A stretch of DNA of 64,000 nucleotides from Actinomycetota bacterium (GTDB lineage Bacteria; Actinomycetota; CADDZG01; WHSQ01). This document shows positions 1,826 to 37,585 of the stretch, in pieces. A model generated the notes under the pieces. The model did not search any database. It was given only the letters and a program-made list of their open reading frames with translations, and was not told the origin of the DNA. How positions within the stretch are numbered: position 1 is the first letter of the stretch; every line of letters begins with the position of its first letter. Location: positions 543,859 to 607,858 of the forward strand of contig JAUJNI010000001.1 of assembly GCA_030446465.1 (NCBI GenBank). Direction: 5' to 3'. The translations under genes were made by a program, and so were the position numbers.

Positions 1826-2107
1826 ATGTACGTTCGGGGCGTGGCCAAGATAGTGCCTTTCACGGAGGCGCGCGCCAATCTGACGGAGCTCCTCGACGCG
1901 GTTGAGGATAAGCATGAGCATGTCCTCATCACTCGCAACGGGCGCCCATCTGCAGTCATGCTCTCTGCCGACGAATACGAGTCGCTCGAGGAGACTCTGA
2001 ACGTCCTCCAGGACAAGGACCTAATGGAAGCCCTCGGGAAGAGCGAGGGCGACGTGAGGGCCGGCCGGCTCGTCTCCCTCGGGGATGTCCGCAGCCGCCG
2101 TCGCTGA
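1826..2107 (+). CDS. Phd/YefM-family antitoxin
   Basis: This small protein (93 residues) resembles Phd/YefM antitoxins, which bind DNA with the N-terminal half and neutralise a RelE/ParE toxin with the C-terminal half. The pattern IVPFTEARANLTELLDAVE followed by VLITRNGRPSAVMLSADEYE is the usual Phd/YefM signature: a helix, a short strand with a basic N-G-R/K turn, then the 'AVLVS..DY/EY' strand. A GTG at 1841 (VAKIVPFTEAR) is an alternative start closer to the family length. The stop overlaps the ATG of the next gene (TGATG), the usual coupling in toxin/antitoxin operons. The pair should autoregulate its own promoter just upstream. It is the first gene inside the island and may have stabilised it. 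Confidence 0.85.
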   Translation: MYVRGVAKIVPFTEARANLTELLDAVEDKHEHVLITRNGRPSAVMLSADEYESLEETLNVLQDKDLMEALGKSEGDVRAGRLVSLGDVRSRRR

Positions 2108-2366
2108 TGCCCGGGGGCCAGTTGACCCGCCAAGCGGCATCCACTTTGAGTCTCTTCGTCGGCACCTTCAGGACCCGGTGCTGAACGCGCTCACAGATCT
2201 TGAGATCGATCCCGACGCGGCTGACACACCACTGCTCGGTCGACTCAAGGGACTGCGCGCTGAGCGCGTCGGCAGTTACCGAATCATTTACTCGATTGAG
2301 AAAAGCCGCCGTCCACCGACGGTGATGGTCCGAGCGATAAAACACCGCGCCCAGGCGTATAAGTAA
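2107..2366 (+). pseudogene. RelE/ParE-type toxin, apparently frameshifted near its start
   Basis: Partner of the preceding antitoxin. The C-terminal part reads LKGLRAERVGSYRIIYSIEK, the core of RelE/ParE mRNA interferases or gyrase toxins, and ends RAIKHRAQAYK, where the His/Arg tail normally sits. The expected start is the ATG at 2107 that overlaps the antitoxin stop and gives MPGGQLTRQAAS, matching the usual first strand of these toxins. That frame runs out after about 12 residues, while the rest (HFESLRRHLQDPVLNALTDL) is in another frame that opens upstream at 2085. A one-base shift near 2140 would restore a normal 85-residue toxin. Either the toxin is dead or the base call is wrong. If the frame from 2085 is used, the protein would have an atypical N-terminus. 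Confidence 0.65.
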
Positions 2367-3185: not shown

Positions 3186-3476
3186 ATGTCGCTTGACTAC
3201 TTGAAGGATGCTGTAGCCACGGGAGATAGCGACGCGTTGATCCGTTACGTGCGCCTACACGTGGGTGATGGCGATGATCAGCAGGGACGTAACGAGATAG
3301 ACAAGGCATGGGTGCAGGCGCTCAAGGTGTTACTGGATGTGCCTGTGACCGACCGCCAGTTCATCGTAGATACATTGGCGAACAAAGACGAAGCGACGCT
3401 CGCGCACCTGTTCTTCTCGCTGCACTTCCACCTCGTGAAGCAGTCTGGAGATTGGATACATGACGGCACCCTCTGA
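3186..3476 (+). CDS. Small alpha-helical protein upstream of selenoprotein
   Basis: I do not recognise this 96-residue protein. It is soluble, mostly helical and acidic, with no signal peptide, membrane helix or metal motif. The start is the ATG at 3186 (MSLDYLKDAVATGD). Its last 17 bases overlap the start of the GrdB-like selenoprotein gene at 3460, so the two are almost certainly co-translated. Such tight coupling suggests a partner or chaperone for the selenoprotein. It is the first gene of a probable three-gene operon with the selenoprotein and the nitrilase. Confidence 0.6.
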   Translation: MSLDYLKDAVATGDSDALIRYVRLHVGDGDDQQGRNEIDKAWVQALKVLLDVPVTDRQFIVDTLANKDEATLAHLFFSLHFHLVKQSGDWIHDGTL

Positions 3477-4278
3477 AACTCAGCGCCAGTTGCGCCCCGG
3501 GCTGTGGCAAACGGTGAACGAGCGGTATCCCGGTGCCATGATCTCGAAGAGCGACGTGGTTCCGCTCGCACGGCTCGACAAGCCTCTCGAAGCGGCGCGC
3601 CTCACATTCATCAGCTCGGCGGGCGTGCAGCCGAAAGGGACGCTGCCGTTCGATGTGGTTCACCCCGTGGGCGACTACACGTTCCGCCGCGTCCCGTCAG
3701 ATGCCTCACCGTCCGACCTCGAGATCCATCAGCTGAAGTACCCGACCGACGGAGCGAGCCGCGACCTGAACGTGATTTTCCCGATAGAACGGCTCCAGGC
3801 GCTCGCTGCGGAGAGGGTCATCGGTAGCCTCACCCGGAACTTTTTCTCGTTCATCGGCTACAACATGGATCCGGAGCGGCTGGAGGCGACCCTCGCGGAG
3901 GACATCGCCGACGCCACAGTCGCAGACCATGCCGACATCGCACTGCTGGCGCCTGCCTGACCTATATGACACCAGTCTGTCGCGCTCGTGCAGCGCGCTG
4001 TAGAGCAACGGGGTATCGCCACCGTGTCCATAAGCGTCGCCCGTGACGTAACGGAGCACTGCAAGCCGCCCCGCGCCGTCTTCGTGCCGTTCCGGATGGG
4101 ACACCATTTCGGCGTTCCATTCCACGCCGACCTACAGCGGCGCATCATCGTCGAAGCTCTTGCGCGGATCGAGGACGTCGAGACCAGCGGCGACATCCAA
4201 GACCTTCCGATCACGTGGGCGCAGGCGCGCAGAGAGGGTCGAGTCATCGAGCAGGAGATCGGCCGGACCTCCGCATGA
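3460..4278 (+). CDS. GrdB/PrdB-like selenoprotein with UPIU motif (two in-frame TGA)
   Basis: One frame runs from the ATG at 3460 to the TGA at 4276 if two TGA codons (3958-3960 and 3967-3969) are read as selenocysteine. The product is 272 residues with Sec167 and Sec170 in LLAPA-U-P-I-U-HQSVAL. This belongs to the glycine/sarcosine/betaine or D-proline reductase 'selenoprotein B' superfamily, where Cys homologues carry CPxCHQ at this point. The part before the TGA matches the family (repeat of 'FPIERL..LAAERVIGSLTRNFFSF') and the part after it (GIATVSISVARDVTE, PPRAVFVPFRMGHHFG) is the expected C-terminal half, so the TGA is not a natural end. A hairpin at 3981-3997 fits a bacterial SECIS. 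The paired Sec residues suggest a diselenide/thiol redox centre; substrate unknown. Two nonsense mutations exactly at the two redox Cys would be the alternative. Confidence 0.8.
3981..3997 (+). promoter_or_regulatory. SECIS-like hairpin of the UPIU selenoprotein
   Basis: Perfect 6-bp stem CGCGCT/AGCGCG closing a five-base loop CGTGC. The loop begins 17 nt after the second TGA (3967-3969) and 26 nt after the first (3958-3960), within the range used by bacterial SelB, so one hairpin could serve both codons. The loop carries the G-U that SelB reads in known elements. Confidence 0.7.
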
Positions 4279-4297
4279 GTGAACGGAGCTATCGATA

Positions 4298-5236
4298 ATG
4301 AGGATCGCAGCGGCGCAAGCTCACTCGGTATGGCTAGACCCCGCCGCGACTTCGAAGAAGGTCTTGTCGTTCTTGCAGGACGCGGCCGCCGAAGGGGTAG
4401 AGCTCCTGGCTTTCCCTGAGACCTTCTTGTCCGGATACCCGTTCTGGGTCGAGAAGACCGACGGGGCTCGTTTCAACGATGACCGCCAGAAGGCCGCCTA
4501 CGCCTATTACCTTGACGCAGCGGTCGAGATGGACGGGCCGGAGATCGGTGACATCACCGAAGCTGTAGCCGATCTCGGTGTCTTCACCTATCTCGGGATC
4601 ACCGAGCGAGGTAGCGGAGCAGCGCACGGGACCGTGTTCTGCACCCTCGTCGCCATAGATCCCAGGCACGGGATCCTTTCACGCCACCGAAAGCTGGTTC
4701 CGACCTACGAAGAAAGGCTGGTGTGGGGGCATGGTGATGGCTACGGACTCCGGGTCCACGACCTCCCAGGCGGAAAGGTCGGCGGGCTGAACTGCTGGGA
4801 GAACTGGATGCCACAGGCTCGTCACGCGCTCTACGCGGGCGGCGAGGACGTACACGTGAGCGTGTGGCCGGGCGCTACACGACTAACCCGTGACATCGCC
4901 AGATTCATCGCGCTGGAGGGCCGTGTTTATTCGCTTGCTGCGTGCGGCGTGCTGGCGCTCGAGGACGTCCCTACCGACTTCCCCCTTCGGGACCTACTGG
5001 AGGACCAAGACAACAACCTCTACTACAACGGCGGTTCGGCCATCGCGGCTCCGGACGGGACCTGGGTTGTGGAGCCGGTCGAGAACGAAGAACGGCTGAT
5101 CGTCGCCGATATCGATCTGGCTCTGGTTCGACGGGAGCGACAGAGCTTCGACCCCACCGGCCACTACAGTCGGCCGGACGTATTCGACGTTCGCGTCGAC
5201 CGTCGCCGCAGAGACGCGGCTGTCTTCACCGACTGA
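4298..5236 (+). CDS. Nitrilase / carbon-nitrogen hydrolase
   Basis: This 312-residue protein is a nitrilase-superfamily enzyme that would hydrolyse a C-N bond, most likely turning a nitrile into an acid plus ammonia. The catalytic triad is visible: Glu41 in AFPETFLSGYP, Lys132 in HRKLVPT and Cys166 in GGLNCWENWMP. The sequence YP after FLSG and the CWEN motif favour the true nitrilase/cyanide-hydratase branch over amidase branches, and the length is usual for it. It starts 20 bp after the selenoprotein gene on the same strand and is probably in the same operon. That pairing suggests a common small nitrogen-containing substrate or a detoxification role, but the sequence does not identify the substrate. 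Confidence 0.88.
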   Translation: MRIAAAQAHSVWLDPAATSKKVLSFLQDAAAEGVELLAFPETFLSGYPFWVEKTDGARFNDDRQKAAYAYYLDAAVEMDGPEIGDITEAVADLGVFTYLGITERGSGAAHGTVFCTLVAIDPRHGILSRHRKLVPTYEERLVWGHGDGYGLRVHDLPGGKVGGLNCWENWMPQARHALYAGGEDVHVSVWPGATRLTRDIARFIALEGRVYSLAACGVLALEDVPTDFPLRDLLEDQDNNLYYNGGSAIAAPDGTWVVEPVENEERLIVADIDLALVRRERQSFDPTGHYSRPDVFDVRVDRRRRDAAVFTD

Positions 5237-5343
5237 TAGCCGCCGTCTCTTATCGCGCTCATGACGCCCAAGCGCGCTATGGCAACTTTTGAGGCCAAAT
5301 GTCTGAGATTGGCACCACAACCGTGGGAACCGTAGCCAGAAAA

Positions 5344-5384
5344 GGGTCGCCGGGGAAACGAACCCTGAACCTACGGATTAAGAG
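5344..5384 (-). repeat. tRNA-Lys 3'-half fragment (att-like site, internal)
   Basis: About 41 bp match the 3' half of tRNA-Lys(CTT) at 41879, again ending at the anticodon loop, with a few mismatches in the T arm. Same orientation as the functional tRNA. It divides the island into a 3.7-kb left unit and a 36.5-kb right unit and is read as an internal attachment site. Confidence 0.75.
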
Positions 5385-5502
5385 CTGGGATGTTGTCAAC
5401 GCTTGTCAAGTTCTTGCGAGACCGTGCATGCTCCCAGGTCGGCGCCATGGTTGTAGTTCGCAAGACTTGCCCTCGTTTTTCATCGCTTTGCGTCGCTCGC
5501 GT

Positions 5503-5608
5503 GTCAAAATCGTGTCGCCGTCAGCAAGGCGTCGGCCGTCCCCGGGGCCGCCGGTTGAAGGAGGCGACTTCGGGGGCCGAGACCGTTGTGGGTCACGGGT
5601 CTCTTTGG
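5503..5608 (+). repeat. 106-bp segment, inverted copy at 39320-39427
   Basis: This stretch is the reverse complement of 39320-39427 with a handful of mismatches and indels, mostly at the outer end. It lies directly against the left edge of the 1.87-kb direct repeat in both places, but in opposite orientation. No gene is seen in it; it contains GGCGACTTCGG and GTGGGTCACGGG blocks. Its origin is unknown. Confidence 0.8.
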
Positions 5609-5774
5609 TGTCTTTCTTCTGCAGGATGGGTACGGCAGGATTCGCGATGGCGGTGAGCTCGCTGTCGGTCGTGCTGGACGCCAATGAGATGCGTAAATTT
5701 CCGCCCCGCGCGCTTAGTCGATGGAGGAAGACCCCTTCCCGCTACTTTTTAGTGTCCGTTACAGTGAAGTGGAT

Positions 5775-6038
5775 ATGAAGACGCTGCTGGTTCTAGGGCT
5801 TGTGTTGCTTCTGCTCGTGGTGGGGCTTCCCATCGCCATGGGCATGGGCGACATGGGACCGTGCCCTTCCTGTTCAGCGCCGGATGCCTCCGTCGCTGTG
5901 GCGATGTGCCTCGCGATCCTCGCGATCGGCGGGCTCTTCATGACGCCGGCGTTCTCGGGCCGAATCTCGCAGTGCAGCAAGCGCACCCCTCGTTTCCTCG
6001 CCGTCTCTGGCCTCGATAGACCTCCGCAGCACGCGTAG
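5775..6038 (+). CDS. Small membrane protein with CPSC motif (repeat copy 1)
   Basis: Starts at the ATG at 5775 (MKTLLVLGLVLLLLVVG). The protein has two hydrophobic segments, residues 2-22 and about 43-62, around a loop with GPCPSCSAP. The Cys pair could bind a soft metal or form a disulfide outside the membrane, but I do not recognise the family. In this copy an extra C in a run changes the last 20 or so residues compared with copy 2 (39590-39856), so at least one C-terminus is wrong. It leads a small operon with the 69-residue membrane protein and the BNR protein. In other actinobacteria such sets often lie near copper-handling genes; this is only a weak hint. Confidence 0.55.
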   Translation: MKTLLVLGLVLLLLVVGLPIAMGMGDMGPCPSCSAPDASVAVAMCLAILAIGGLFMTPAFSGRISQCSKRTPRFLAVSGLDRPPQHA

Positions 6039-6101: not shown

Positions 6102-6311
6102 TTGGAATGGTTATTGGTCTATGTGCCGGCGATCGCCTGTGCGGCGATGATGCTGGTGATCTGTCTCCCCATGATGCGCAAGATGTCGGGTGGTCACGCA
6201 CAAGAAGGAGGGGCATCGAGCGACGAGGTCGCCGAGCTCCGCTACGAGGTGGCGCGCCTTCGCGCTGAGCGGGCACTGGCGTCCCAGCCCGACGAGGTGA
6301 CCCATGGCTAA
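6102..6311 (+). CDS. 69-residue membrane-anchored protein (repeat copy 1)
   Basis: Starts with TTG at 6102, set well after an AGGAGG box, and overlaps the ATG of the BNR-protein gene by 8 bases, so the two are translationally coupled. The N-terminal 25 residues form one membrane helix (LLVYVPAIACAAMMLVICLP) followed by a short charged helix (ELRYEVARLRAERAL) that may form a coiled coil. The layout resembles small SHOCT-like or cytochrome-oxidase-accessory proteins, but I cannot assign a function. It is identical in copy 2 at 39916-40125. Confidence 0.55.
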   Translation: MEWLLVYVPAIACAAMMLVICLPMMRKMSGGHAQEGGASSDEVAELRYEVARLRAERALASQPDEVTHG

Positions 6312-7259
6312 GACCTCAACCCGCACCCGGCCGACGCCGTCCAGCAAGAAGGCCGGATCGCACCAGAAGAGCAGGCGACCTACGCCCAAGCCGTGGTACC
6401 AGCGGGTCGGTTCGACGACGTGGATAGCCGTCGTCTTGGTTGCCGGGATCGCTCTCTTCGCCCTGCTCAGCAGAGGAAACGAGACACCGGAAGGGCGGTC
6501 CGCGGTGCCGGTGGTGGGAGCGGACCTCCACTCTCTCGTCGTCGACCCCAAGAATCCCTCGCGTCTTTTCATCGGGAGTCATCAGGGCGTCTCGGCGTCG
6601 ACCGACGGTGGTGAGACGTGGCAGGTGCTCGAGAGCCTCAACGGCGCGGATGCGATGGGTTGGGCTTTTACCGAGGAAGCGATCCTCGTTGGCGGCCACC
6701 CTGGTCTCTACGTCTCAACGGACGGCGGCACCAGCTTCGAGCAGCGTAAGAAAGGCCTTCCCAACACCGAGACGTCCACGCGTTGGGGGCCGGCGACGGA
6801 GTGATCTACGCCGCATCACCTGGTGCAGGGTTCATAGCATCGACCGACGGGGGCGAGACATGGACAGTTCGCAACGACCGGGTCGGACAAGGGTTCATGG
6901 GCAAGATCCTGGTCGACCCCGAAGACCCGGACCACGTCATAGCGCCGGACATGCGGGCCGGTGCGGCGGAAAGCACCGACGGCGGTAAGAGCTGGGGCGC
7001 GCTTGGCGGCGTCCAGGGGGCGATGTGGGTCTCGTGGGACCCGTCCGACACCGGCGACATCATCGTGACGGCGACGGGGTCTGCCGTTCGTTCCACCGAC
7101 GGCGGCAAGACGTGGGACCCAATCGAGATCCCCGATGGCGCCTCGATCGTTGAGTTCTCCCCGGACGACCCGAAGACGCTCTACGCCGCGGTCCACGAAG
7201 ACCCGGAGGCGCGGGTCTGGGTCAGCACCAATGACGGCCAAACGTGGGAGGAGCTGTGA
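6304..7259 (+). pseudogene. BNR-repeat (sortilin/exo-glycosidase-like) protein, frameshifted (copy 1)
   Basis: The gene encodes a basic N-terminus, one membrane helix (about residues 39-58) and a beta-propeller made of Asp-box repeats: SASTDGGETW, VSTDGGTSF, ASTDGGETW, STDGGKSW, RSTDGGKTW and VSTNDGQTW. This is the 'F510_1955-like glycosylhydrolase' or sortilin-like type, probably an anchored extracellular propeller. In this copy two extra bases near 6772 shift the frame after KKGLPNT; the rest reads on from about 6783. Copy 2 is intact here but broken elsewhere, so combining the copies gives one uninterrupted protein of about 318 residues. The function is unknown; catalytic residues of true sialidases are not seen. 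Confidence 0.7.
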
Positions 7260-36779: not shown

Positions 36780-37585
36780 GTGAAGATCGCCGGCACCCGC
36801 CCGGGGTTCGATGATGACTCCAGAGGGTTCGCCGCGATCGAGCGTGATCACGTCCGCACGTTCGTGCCCGACTTCGAATGGCTCCGCTTCCCAGATCCCT
36901 CGCAGCGCAACCCGCTGACTGTGCCACTTGGCGAAGCACGGATCGCGCTGATCGGCACTGCCGGCGCACATCTTCCCGGTGAGCCCGGCATGTCTCCGCG
37001 TGGCGAGGTCAGGTTCATCCCTTCGACCAGCACCAAGATCGATTTCACGCACCCGGGCTTCGACACGGCGCGGGCGGCGCTCGATCCCGAGGTCGTTTTC
37101 CCGCTAGAGACCGTGCGCAGGCTGGTCGAGGCGGGTTTCGTGGGCGAACTAGCGCCAACAGCCATTTCAACCATGGGCTTCATCCCACGCGGAGCCCGCG
37201 TCCTCGGGCACCTCGTGCCCGAGGTCGTCAGGCGGGTGCGAGACGAGGAGGTTCATCTCGCGCTGCTGGTTCCCGCGTGACCGGTTTGTCAGCAGTCAGT
37301 CGGGCTGCTACAGCGCGGGATCTATGAAGCCGGCATCGGGACGGTGTCCGTAACTCAGGTTCCTGGATCACTGAGTTCGTGAAGCCTTCGTTGGCGTGCT
37401 TCGTCGCACACCCGTTCGGGCTGACGCTTGGCGCTTTGAACGATTCTGACACGCACACCGCGGTGGCGCGCGCCGTCCTCAATGAAGCAGAACACGATCA
37501 CCCCCCGGGAAAGATCGTCCCCCTGTCGCGTTTCCAGTGGCCGGACGATCTTCGTCGCCGTCAACTGCGCAAGGATGCGCATTAG
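36780..37585 (+). CDS. GrdB/PrdB-like selenoprotein with UPVC motif, one frameshift
   Basis: Second member of the selenoprotein-B-like family. From the GTG at 36780 the frame reaches a TGA at 37278-37280, predicted Sec167, in LALLVPA-U-PVCQQSVGLL; the same residue number as the first Sec of the protein at 3460, which supports this start. Reading continues GIYEAGIGTVSVTQV, then one base shift near 37352 leads to ITEFVKPSLACFVAHPFGLT and on to the stop at 37585. The second redox position is Cys170, so the motif is UxxC. A hairpin at 37291-37309 fits a SECIS. The shift may be a sequencing error or make this copy inactive. Confidence 0.65.
37291..37309 (+). promoter_or_regulatory. SECIS-like hairpin of the UPVC selenoprotein
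   Basis: Seven-bp stem AGCAGTC/GGCTGCT, with one T-G wobble, closing a five-base loop AGTCG. The loop begins 17 nt after the TGA at 37278-37280, the same spacing as in the UPIU gene. Loop positions two and three are G-T as in the other three hairpins. Confidence 0.6.

What the first reader, a model, noticed from the sequence alone, without database searches (positions are those of the whole stretch)
3460..5236. UPIU double-selenocysteine protein coupled to a small helical protein and a nitrilase
The protein at 3460 has two predicted Sec three residues apart, a potential diselenide. It is translationally coupled to an unknown 96-residue protein and followed at 20 bp by a nitrilase with a complete Glu41/Lys132/Cys166 triad. 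I do not know this three-gene combination as a described system. It could act on nitriles, cyano or amine compounds, with the selenoprotein doing a reductive step.
Basis: partly seen in the sequence, partly recalled or inferred. Interest (0 to 1): 0.85.

Follow-up and report, generated by a model that had tools for sequence, protein, structure and literature searches.

The report
Two-selenocysteine reductase-like operon with nitrilase
The window holds a real three-gene operon: an undescribed 96-residue helical protein, a D-proline-reductase-like protein with two selenocysteines read through one shared RNA signal, and a nitrilase; the first two travel together in at least nine bacterial phyla and a nitrilase sits near them in about 4 of 10 cases, so it is probably an uncharacterised selenium-dependent reductase system.

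Summary
Confirmed and extended. Window 3460-4278 is one gene with two in-frame TGA (UPIU), overlapping a 96-aa gene (3186-3476) by 17 nt and followed after 19 nt by a nitrilase (4298-5236) with E41/K132/E139/C166. The genome has tRNA-Sec, SelA and SelB. Fifty-two loci of the same clade were found in many phyla, including cultured Bacillus and Planococcus. All 50 readable at that point keep TGA at the first site; 14 also have it at the second. Downstream synonymous sites are frozen into a SECIS hairpin with two mutually exclusive positions: 11 nt after codon 1 (UPIC only) or 11 nt after codon 4 (all UPIU). The 96-aa partner is present in about 49 of 52 loci, has no known family, and models as five helices without a PDB match. 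A nitrilase lies nearby in 20 of 52 (0 of 28 distant-family loci), up- or downstream, from two subfamilies, but is absent from six Bacillota carriers and replaced in the nearest relative. So the core is the pair; the nitrilase is a recurrent accessory. Function is inferred: selenol-based reductive cleavage. A new variant of the PrdB/GrdB-like selenoprotein family.

The parts
3186..3476 (+). P2: 96-aa all-helical protein, no Cys, no known family; invariant H25, G27-D28-G29, W42, H80, S87, W90-I91-H92-D93-G94
   Evidence: 35-row alignment; no Pfam family; AlphaFold2 pLDDT 93.9, five helices; no convincing PDB fold; homologue next to P1 in about 49 of 52 clade loci
3460..4278 (+). P1: GrdB/PrdB-like selenoprotein, 272 aa with two Sec (U167-P-I-U170); stop TGA 4276-4278
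   Evidence: PF07355 25.3 bits over cut-off 22; TIGR04483 131 bits, below cut-off 300; pLDDT 93.1
3958..3960 (+). First Sec codon (UGA), U167
   Evidence: TGA in all 50 readable clade members, never a Cys codon
3967..3969 (+). Second Sec codon (UGA), U170; Cys (TGC/TGT) in 36 of 50 relatives
   Evidence: at least 5 changes on the tree
3981..3997 (+). SECIS hairpin S2: 6-bp stem, loop CGUGC, starts 11 nt after the second UGA and 20 nt after the first; loop 17 and 26 nt from them
   Evidence: synonymous sites frozen; 99.4% paired, compensatory changes; -8.1 kcal/mol
4298..5236 (+). Nitrilase (CN_hydrolase), catalytic E41/K132/E139/C166, CWENWMP motif
   Evidence: PF00795 152.5 bits; nearest solved: nitrilase 8uxu, NIT4 6i00

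Best explanation
The operon encodes a selenium-dependent, two-subunit reductase-like system (P2 + P1) with a nitrilase as frequent accessory. Shown by sequence conservation: P1 is read through two UGA codons served by one SECIS hairpin placed so that both UGAs fall inside the known bacterial spacing window; P2 and P1 are a conserved, overlapping gene pair; nitrilases have become or stayed linked to that pair in many lineages. Inferred: P1 acts as PrdB/GrdB are thought to act, with Sec167 as selenolate nucleophile that takes a group off an electrophilic carbon (probably C-N, possibly C-S or C-O) and Sec170 (Cys in most relatives) releasing it through an Se-Se or Se-S bond that a cellular thiol system reduces. 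P2, which has no pyruvoyl precursor or Cys but a set of invariant His/Asp/Trp, provides the substrate- or metal-binding half instead of PrdA. The nitrilase hydrolyses a nitrile that is either made available to, or produced from, the same substrate; the pair can also work without it.
For: Sec machinery: tRNA-Sec 83 bits, SelB 328.7 bits, SelA 519 bits; SelB over cut-off in 15 of 16 other carriers. UGA and flank conserved in 50 loci with no Cys form at site 1. Hairpin: Ala GCG 33/33, Gln CAG 36/36 and Arg CGC 32/36 inside the stem against mostly 1-2 bits of synonymous entropy elsewhere; GC3 0.71-0.86 in the stem against 0.26-0.47 in the rest of Bacillota genes; paired 99.4% with compensatory changes. 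S1 and S2 exclude each other; all 14 UPIU have S2. bSECIS rule of 16-37 nt between UGA and loop from PMC13188914. P2-P1 pairing. Nitrilase in 20 of 52 clade loci against 0 of 28 distant-family loci (Fisher p 7e-5, relatedness not corrected), in two orders and two nitrilase subfamilies. Homology to PrdB/GrdB in all 34 members scanned; PrdB/GrdB motif UxxC and mechanism from PMC13188914.
Against: No substrate, activity or structure is known; the reductive-cleavage step rests on distant homology (PrdB model below its cut-off). P2's role rests on conservation alone. Six Bacillota carriers have no nitrilase at all, so the nitrile link cannot be essential. The sister genome has an OCD-family gene in the nitrilase's place and an unlinked nitrilase (79% identical) elsewhere. 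32 of 52 loci show no nitrilase, some only because contigs end. Read-through at either UGA has not been shown by protein data.
Confidence: 0.45

Rival explanations
1. P1-P2 is an antioxidant or electrophile-detoxification module (peroxide, disulfide or alkylating-agent reductase) and the nitrilase is a separate detoxification gene in a shared stress or plant-compound island, not part of one pathway.
For: Carriers look like ordinary soil bacteria including Bacillus and Planococcus; Bacillota have the pair without nitrilase; the third gene varies (OCD, AIRS/SelD-like, cupin, NifU).
Against: The nitrilase is the only neighbour recurring in more than a handful of loci, is immediately adjacent in both orders, and comes from two subfamilies.
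Confidence: 0.3
2. An amino-acid reductase close to D-proline or glycine reductase, used in amino-acid catabolism; the OCD gene in the sister genome would belong to a proline/ornithine route.
For: Best named model is PrdB (131 bits); OCD-family neighbour in L074.
Against: Score is far below the PrdB cut-off (300). No PF09338 (PrdA/GrdE-type) subunit was found in 16 carriers, but that search rang in no control, so it is inconclusive. OCD occurs once.
Confidence: 0.1
3. The first TGA is a true stop and the gene is a pseudogene or a sequencing artefact.
For: The window assembly contains several apparently frameshifted genes (2479-2913, 6304-7259, 36780-37382).
Against: TGA at the same codon in 50 loci from many independent assemblies, with conserved coding downstream, frozen SECIS and Sec machinery.
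Confidence: 0.01

Closest known systems
D-proline reductase PrdB (TIGR04483)
   Same: Homologous over residues 37-253; Sec three positions before a Cys/Sec (UxxC); all 34 members scanned match.
   Different: Below the family cut-off (131 against 300 bits); no PrdA-type partner found; carriers are common soil bacteria rather than amino-acid-fermenting clostridia; P2 and nitrilase as neighbours; UxxU form.
GrdB/GrdF/GrdH, PF07355 family
   Same: P1 matches the C-terminal part of the profile (25.3 bits, cut-off 22), ending at the UxxC site.
   Different: P1 lacks the N-terminal half of GrdB; no GrdA/GrdE/GrdC neighbours.
Marine PrdB-like UxxC selenoproteins (Sargasso Sea and GOS surveys)
   Same: Same broad family, one of the most abundant marine selenoproteins, UxxC (PMC1088965, PMC2398784).
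   Different: Those surveys and the 2026 review list only UxxC with one Sec for PrdB; UxxU is listed for other families. The 28 distant-family loci here have neither P2 nor nitrilase.
Nit1C cluster nitrilases (Podar et al. 2005)
   Same: A nitrilase in a conserved operon that includes an unknown protein of about 100 aa; the window nitrilase matches TIGR04048 below cut-off.
   Different: Nit1C has seven genes including radical SAM, GNAT and AIRS (PMC1199592); none is in this operon and no selenoprotein is reported in Nit1C.

Membership tests
Bacterial selenoprotein gene | In-frame UGA aligned with a Cys or conserved Sec site | tested here: met
   TGA in 50 of 50 at site 1; TGA or Cys at site 2
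Bacterial selenoprotein gene | bSECIS: loop 3-9 nt, stem 4-16 bp, G in first two loop positions, loop 16-37 nt from UGA, MFE <= -7.5 | tested here: met
   S2: loop 5 nt (CGUGC), stem 6 bp, 26 and 17 nt from the two UGAs, -8.1 kcal/mol (rule)
Bacterial selenoprotein gene | tRNA-Sec, SelA, SelB in the genome | tested here: met
   SelD not tested
D-proline reductase PrdB | Scores above the TIGR04483 cut-off | tested here: not met
   131.1 against 300 bits
D-proline reductase PrdB | PrdA/pyruvoyl partner (PF09338) in the genome or next door | tested here: inconclusive
   None in 16 carriers, but no control genome rang
PF07355 GRDB superfamily | Above Pfam gathering score | tested here: met
   25.3 against 22 bits
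Nitrilase (CN_hydrolase, nitrilase branch) | Glu-Lys-Cys catalytic residues | tested here: met
   E41, K132, E139, C166; CWE(N/H)WMP context; nearest solved homologues are nitrilases
Nitrilase (CN_hydrolase, nitrilase branch) | Hydrolyses nitriles | not testable with these tools
   No assay
Nit1C cluster | TIGR04048 above cut-off | tested here: not met
   187 against 502.6 bits

The most novel reading that the evidence does not exclude
A new class of selenoenzyme: a P2-P1 heteromer in which a five-helix His/Asp/Trp protein replaces the pyruvoyl subunit of proline/glycine reductase, coupled to nitrile hydrolysis, and whose switch from one to two selenocysteines became possible because the SECIS hairpin moved 9 nt downstream so that one hairpin decodes two UGAs.
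Probability: 0.25. Interest if true: 0.85.

Novelty: new variant of a known kind. Interest (0 to 1): 0.7.

Why it matters
It gives a defined, widely distributed gene pair around a very abundant but functionally unassigned selenoprotein family, and a first hint (nitrilase) of what its chemistry touches. Cultured carriers (Bacillus, Planococcus, Cytobacillus) make it testable. The two SECIS positions are a natural experiment on how bacteria gain a second selenocysteine and on the spacing rule for UGA decoding.

Tried and rejected
Three-gene unit as an invariant operon: rejected, since the nitrilase is absent from Bacillota genomes and from the sister locus. P2 as a known family: weak Pfam hits only (HAAS, DUF2939, Imm49; best 7e-4, scattered), judged chance helical matches. 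P2 elsewhere: no plasmid, no viral contig, no other member among 296-396 Actinomycetota genomes. Fold search of P1: best VIA-align Z 8.0 to LacI-type cores, rmsd 5.6, at the level of a common Rossmann-like arrangement; no PDB relative by sequence. P2: best Z 2.1. PrdA-type partner search gave nothing but had no positive control. No paper in the open library links selenoproteins and nitrilases as a system.

Full report
What is there. Window 3186-5236 (+) holds three genes with operon-like spacing: P2 (3186-3476, 96 aa), P1 (3460-4278, 272 aa with two in-frame TGA at 3958 and 3967), and a nitrilase (4298-5236, 312 aa). P2 and P1 overlap by 17 nt; 19 nt separate P1 and the nitrilase. The genome has tRNA-Sec (83 bits), SelB (328.7 bits, cut-off 242) and SelA (519 bits), so UGA decoding is expected.

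P1 is a member of a distinct clade of the PrdB/GrdB-like family. It passes PF07355 and matches PrdB at 131 bits, below that model's cut-off of 300. Most distant relatives in Actinomycetota and other phyla carry U-P-x-C with one Sec. A scan of GTDB contigs gave 80 loci; 52 form a clade at about 60-88% identity, in Acidobacteriota, Gemmatimonadota, Chloroflexota/Thermomicrobiota, Armatimonadota, Verrucomicrobiota, Planctomycetota, Vulcanimicrobiota, Actinomycetota and Bacillota, the last with cultured strains. The spread suggests horizontal transfer (inference).

Two selenocysteines are real at the gene level. All 50 clade members readable at the site have TGA at the first position; 14 also have it at the second, the other 36 have Cys there. 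UPIU occurs in Actinomycetota, Acidobacteriota, Thermomicrobiota, Chloroflexota, Armatimonadota and Bacillota, with a minimum of five changes on the P1 tree (quick tree, several open forks).

The SECIS evidence is the strongest single result. In 39 members a 6-bp hairpin (S2, window 3981-3997; one of them, L118, with 5 of 6 pairs) starts 11 nt after codon 4 of the motif; in 11 early-branching UPIC members a different hairpin (S1) starts 11 nt after codon 1. No sequence has both. In S2 members the codons under the hairpin are nearly frozen (Ala GCG 33/33, Gln CAG 36/36, Arg CGC 32/36), while other codons mostly show 1-2 bits of synonymous entropy; in Bacillota the stem codons have GC3 0.71-0.86 against 0.26-0.47 in the rest of the gene. 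Pairing is 99.4% with compensatory changes in S2 and 100% in S1; the swapped structures pair only 67% and 48%. By the published bSECIS rule (16-37 nt from UGA to loop; PMC13188914) S2 is 26 nt and 17 nt from the two UGAs, so one hairpin fits both; S1 is 17 nt from codon 1 but only 8 nt from codon 4, which would not fit. All 14 UPIU genes have S2 (Fisher p 0.02 without correction for relatedness). I read this as: moving the hairpin by nine bases made the second Sec possible. The direction is inferred from the tree. Folding energy alone does not single out the region in the GC-rich window (45-nt z-score 0.49); the case rests on conservation.

P2 is a new family tied to P1. A P2 homologue is directly upstream in about 49 of 52 clade loci, usually with the same overlap, in none of the 28 distant-family loci, and in no other of 296-396 Actinomycetota genomes besides the window's and its sister. 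It has no Cys, 26 invariant columns of 96 including H25, GDG27-29, W42, H80 and WIHDG90-94, no Pfam family, and a confident five-helix model (pLDDT 93.9) without a convincing PDB match. The density of invariant His/Asp/Trp points to a catalytic, metal- or substrate-binding role (inference).

The nitrilase is a recurrent accessory. A profile search finds a nitrilase near P1 in 20 of 52 clade loci (a 21st, L082, holds only a 46-residue N-terminal piece) and in none of 28 distant-family loci (Fisher p 7e-5, relatedness ignored). Nine loci have P2-P1-nitrilase as in the window, two more P1-nitrilase without a detected P2, five have nitrilase-P2-P1, one is divergent, one shows a C-terminal fragment upstream, two lie within 5 kb. 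Two subfamilies are involved: CWENWMP in the window, L111 and L123, and CWEHWMP in the others. At genome level 24 of 35 genomes carrying P1 (the window's included) have such a nitrilase (E 1e-15) against 37 of 246 Actinomycetota (E 1e-40); thresholds and taxa differ, so this is only indicative. Against obligate coupling: the six Bacillota carriers have none, and the sister genome has an OCD/mu-crystallin gene in that place and its nitrilase elsewhere.

Mechanism. By homology with D-proline and glycine reductase (as reviewed in PMC13188914), Sec167 would be the nucleophile and Cys/Sec170 the resolving residue. The pyruvoyl partner was not found, but that search had no positive control. I therefore propose a selenol-based reductive cleavage by a P2-P1 complex on a small electrophilic or nitrogen compound, with the nitrilase widening the substrate range or removing a nitrile. 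The gene-level claims are near certain; the chemistry is a hypothesis.

Known or new. The PrdB-like UxxC family is known from marine metagenomes (PMC1088965, PMC2398784). The surveys and reviews held list PrdB only as UxxC with one Sec; the UxxU form in this family, the P2 family, the nitrilase link and the two SECIS positions were not found described. Subscription literature could not be searched.

Noticed in passing
window 36780-37382: Second GrdB/PrdB-like selenoprotein gene (UPVC, TGA at 37278-37280); relative to L023 it seems to lose frame near 37360, by a real frameshift or an assembly indel.
   Followed up: partly
G000:C6:385302-386234 (L194): Second, unlinked nitrilase copy in the same genome, 78% identical to the operon copy, with an in-frame TAG.
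   Followed up: partly
L052:9389-10378 (L074:7816-8805): In the sister genome an OCD/mu-crystallin family gene occupies the place of the nitrilase, starting next to the selenoprotein stop.
   Followed up: partly
window 6304-7259 and 2479-2913: Apparently frameshifted genes (a repeat protein that is one ORF in L052 at 4919-5950; a MarC fragment), which suggests assembly indels or decaying genes in this window.
   Followed up: no
window 1826-2366: PhdYefM antitoxin / ParE toxin pair just upstream of the operon.
   Followed up: no
L097:7836-8918: In a Gemmatimonadota locus the selenoprotein is followed by an AIRS-family gene, possibly selD.
   Followed up: no
L126, L120: Clade members whose reading frame departs from the family near the Sec site (Terrihalobacillus L126 right after the first TGA; L120 before it), possibly decaying or rearranged copies.
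   Followed up: no
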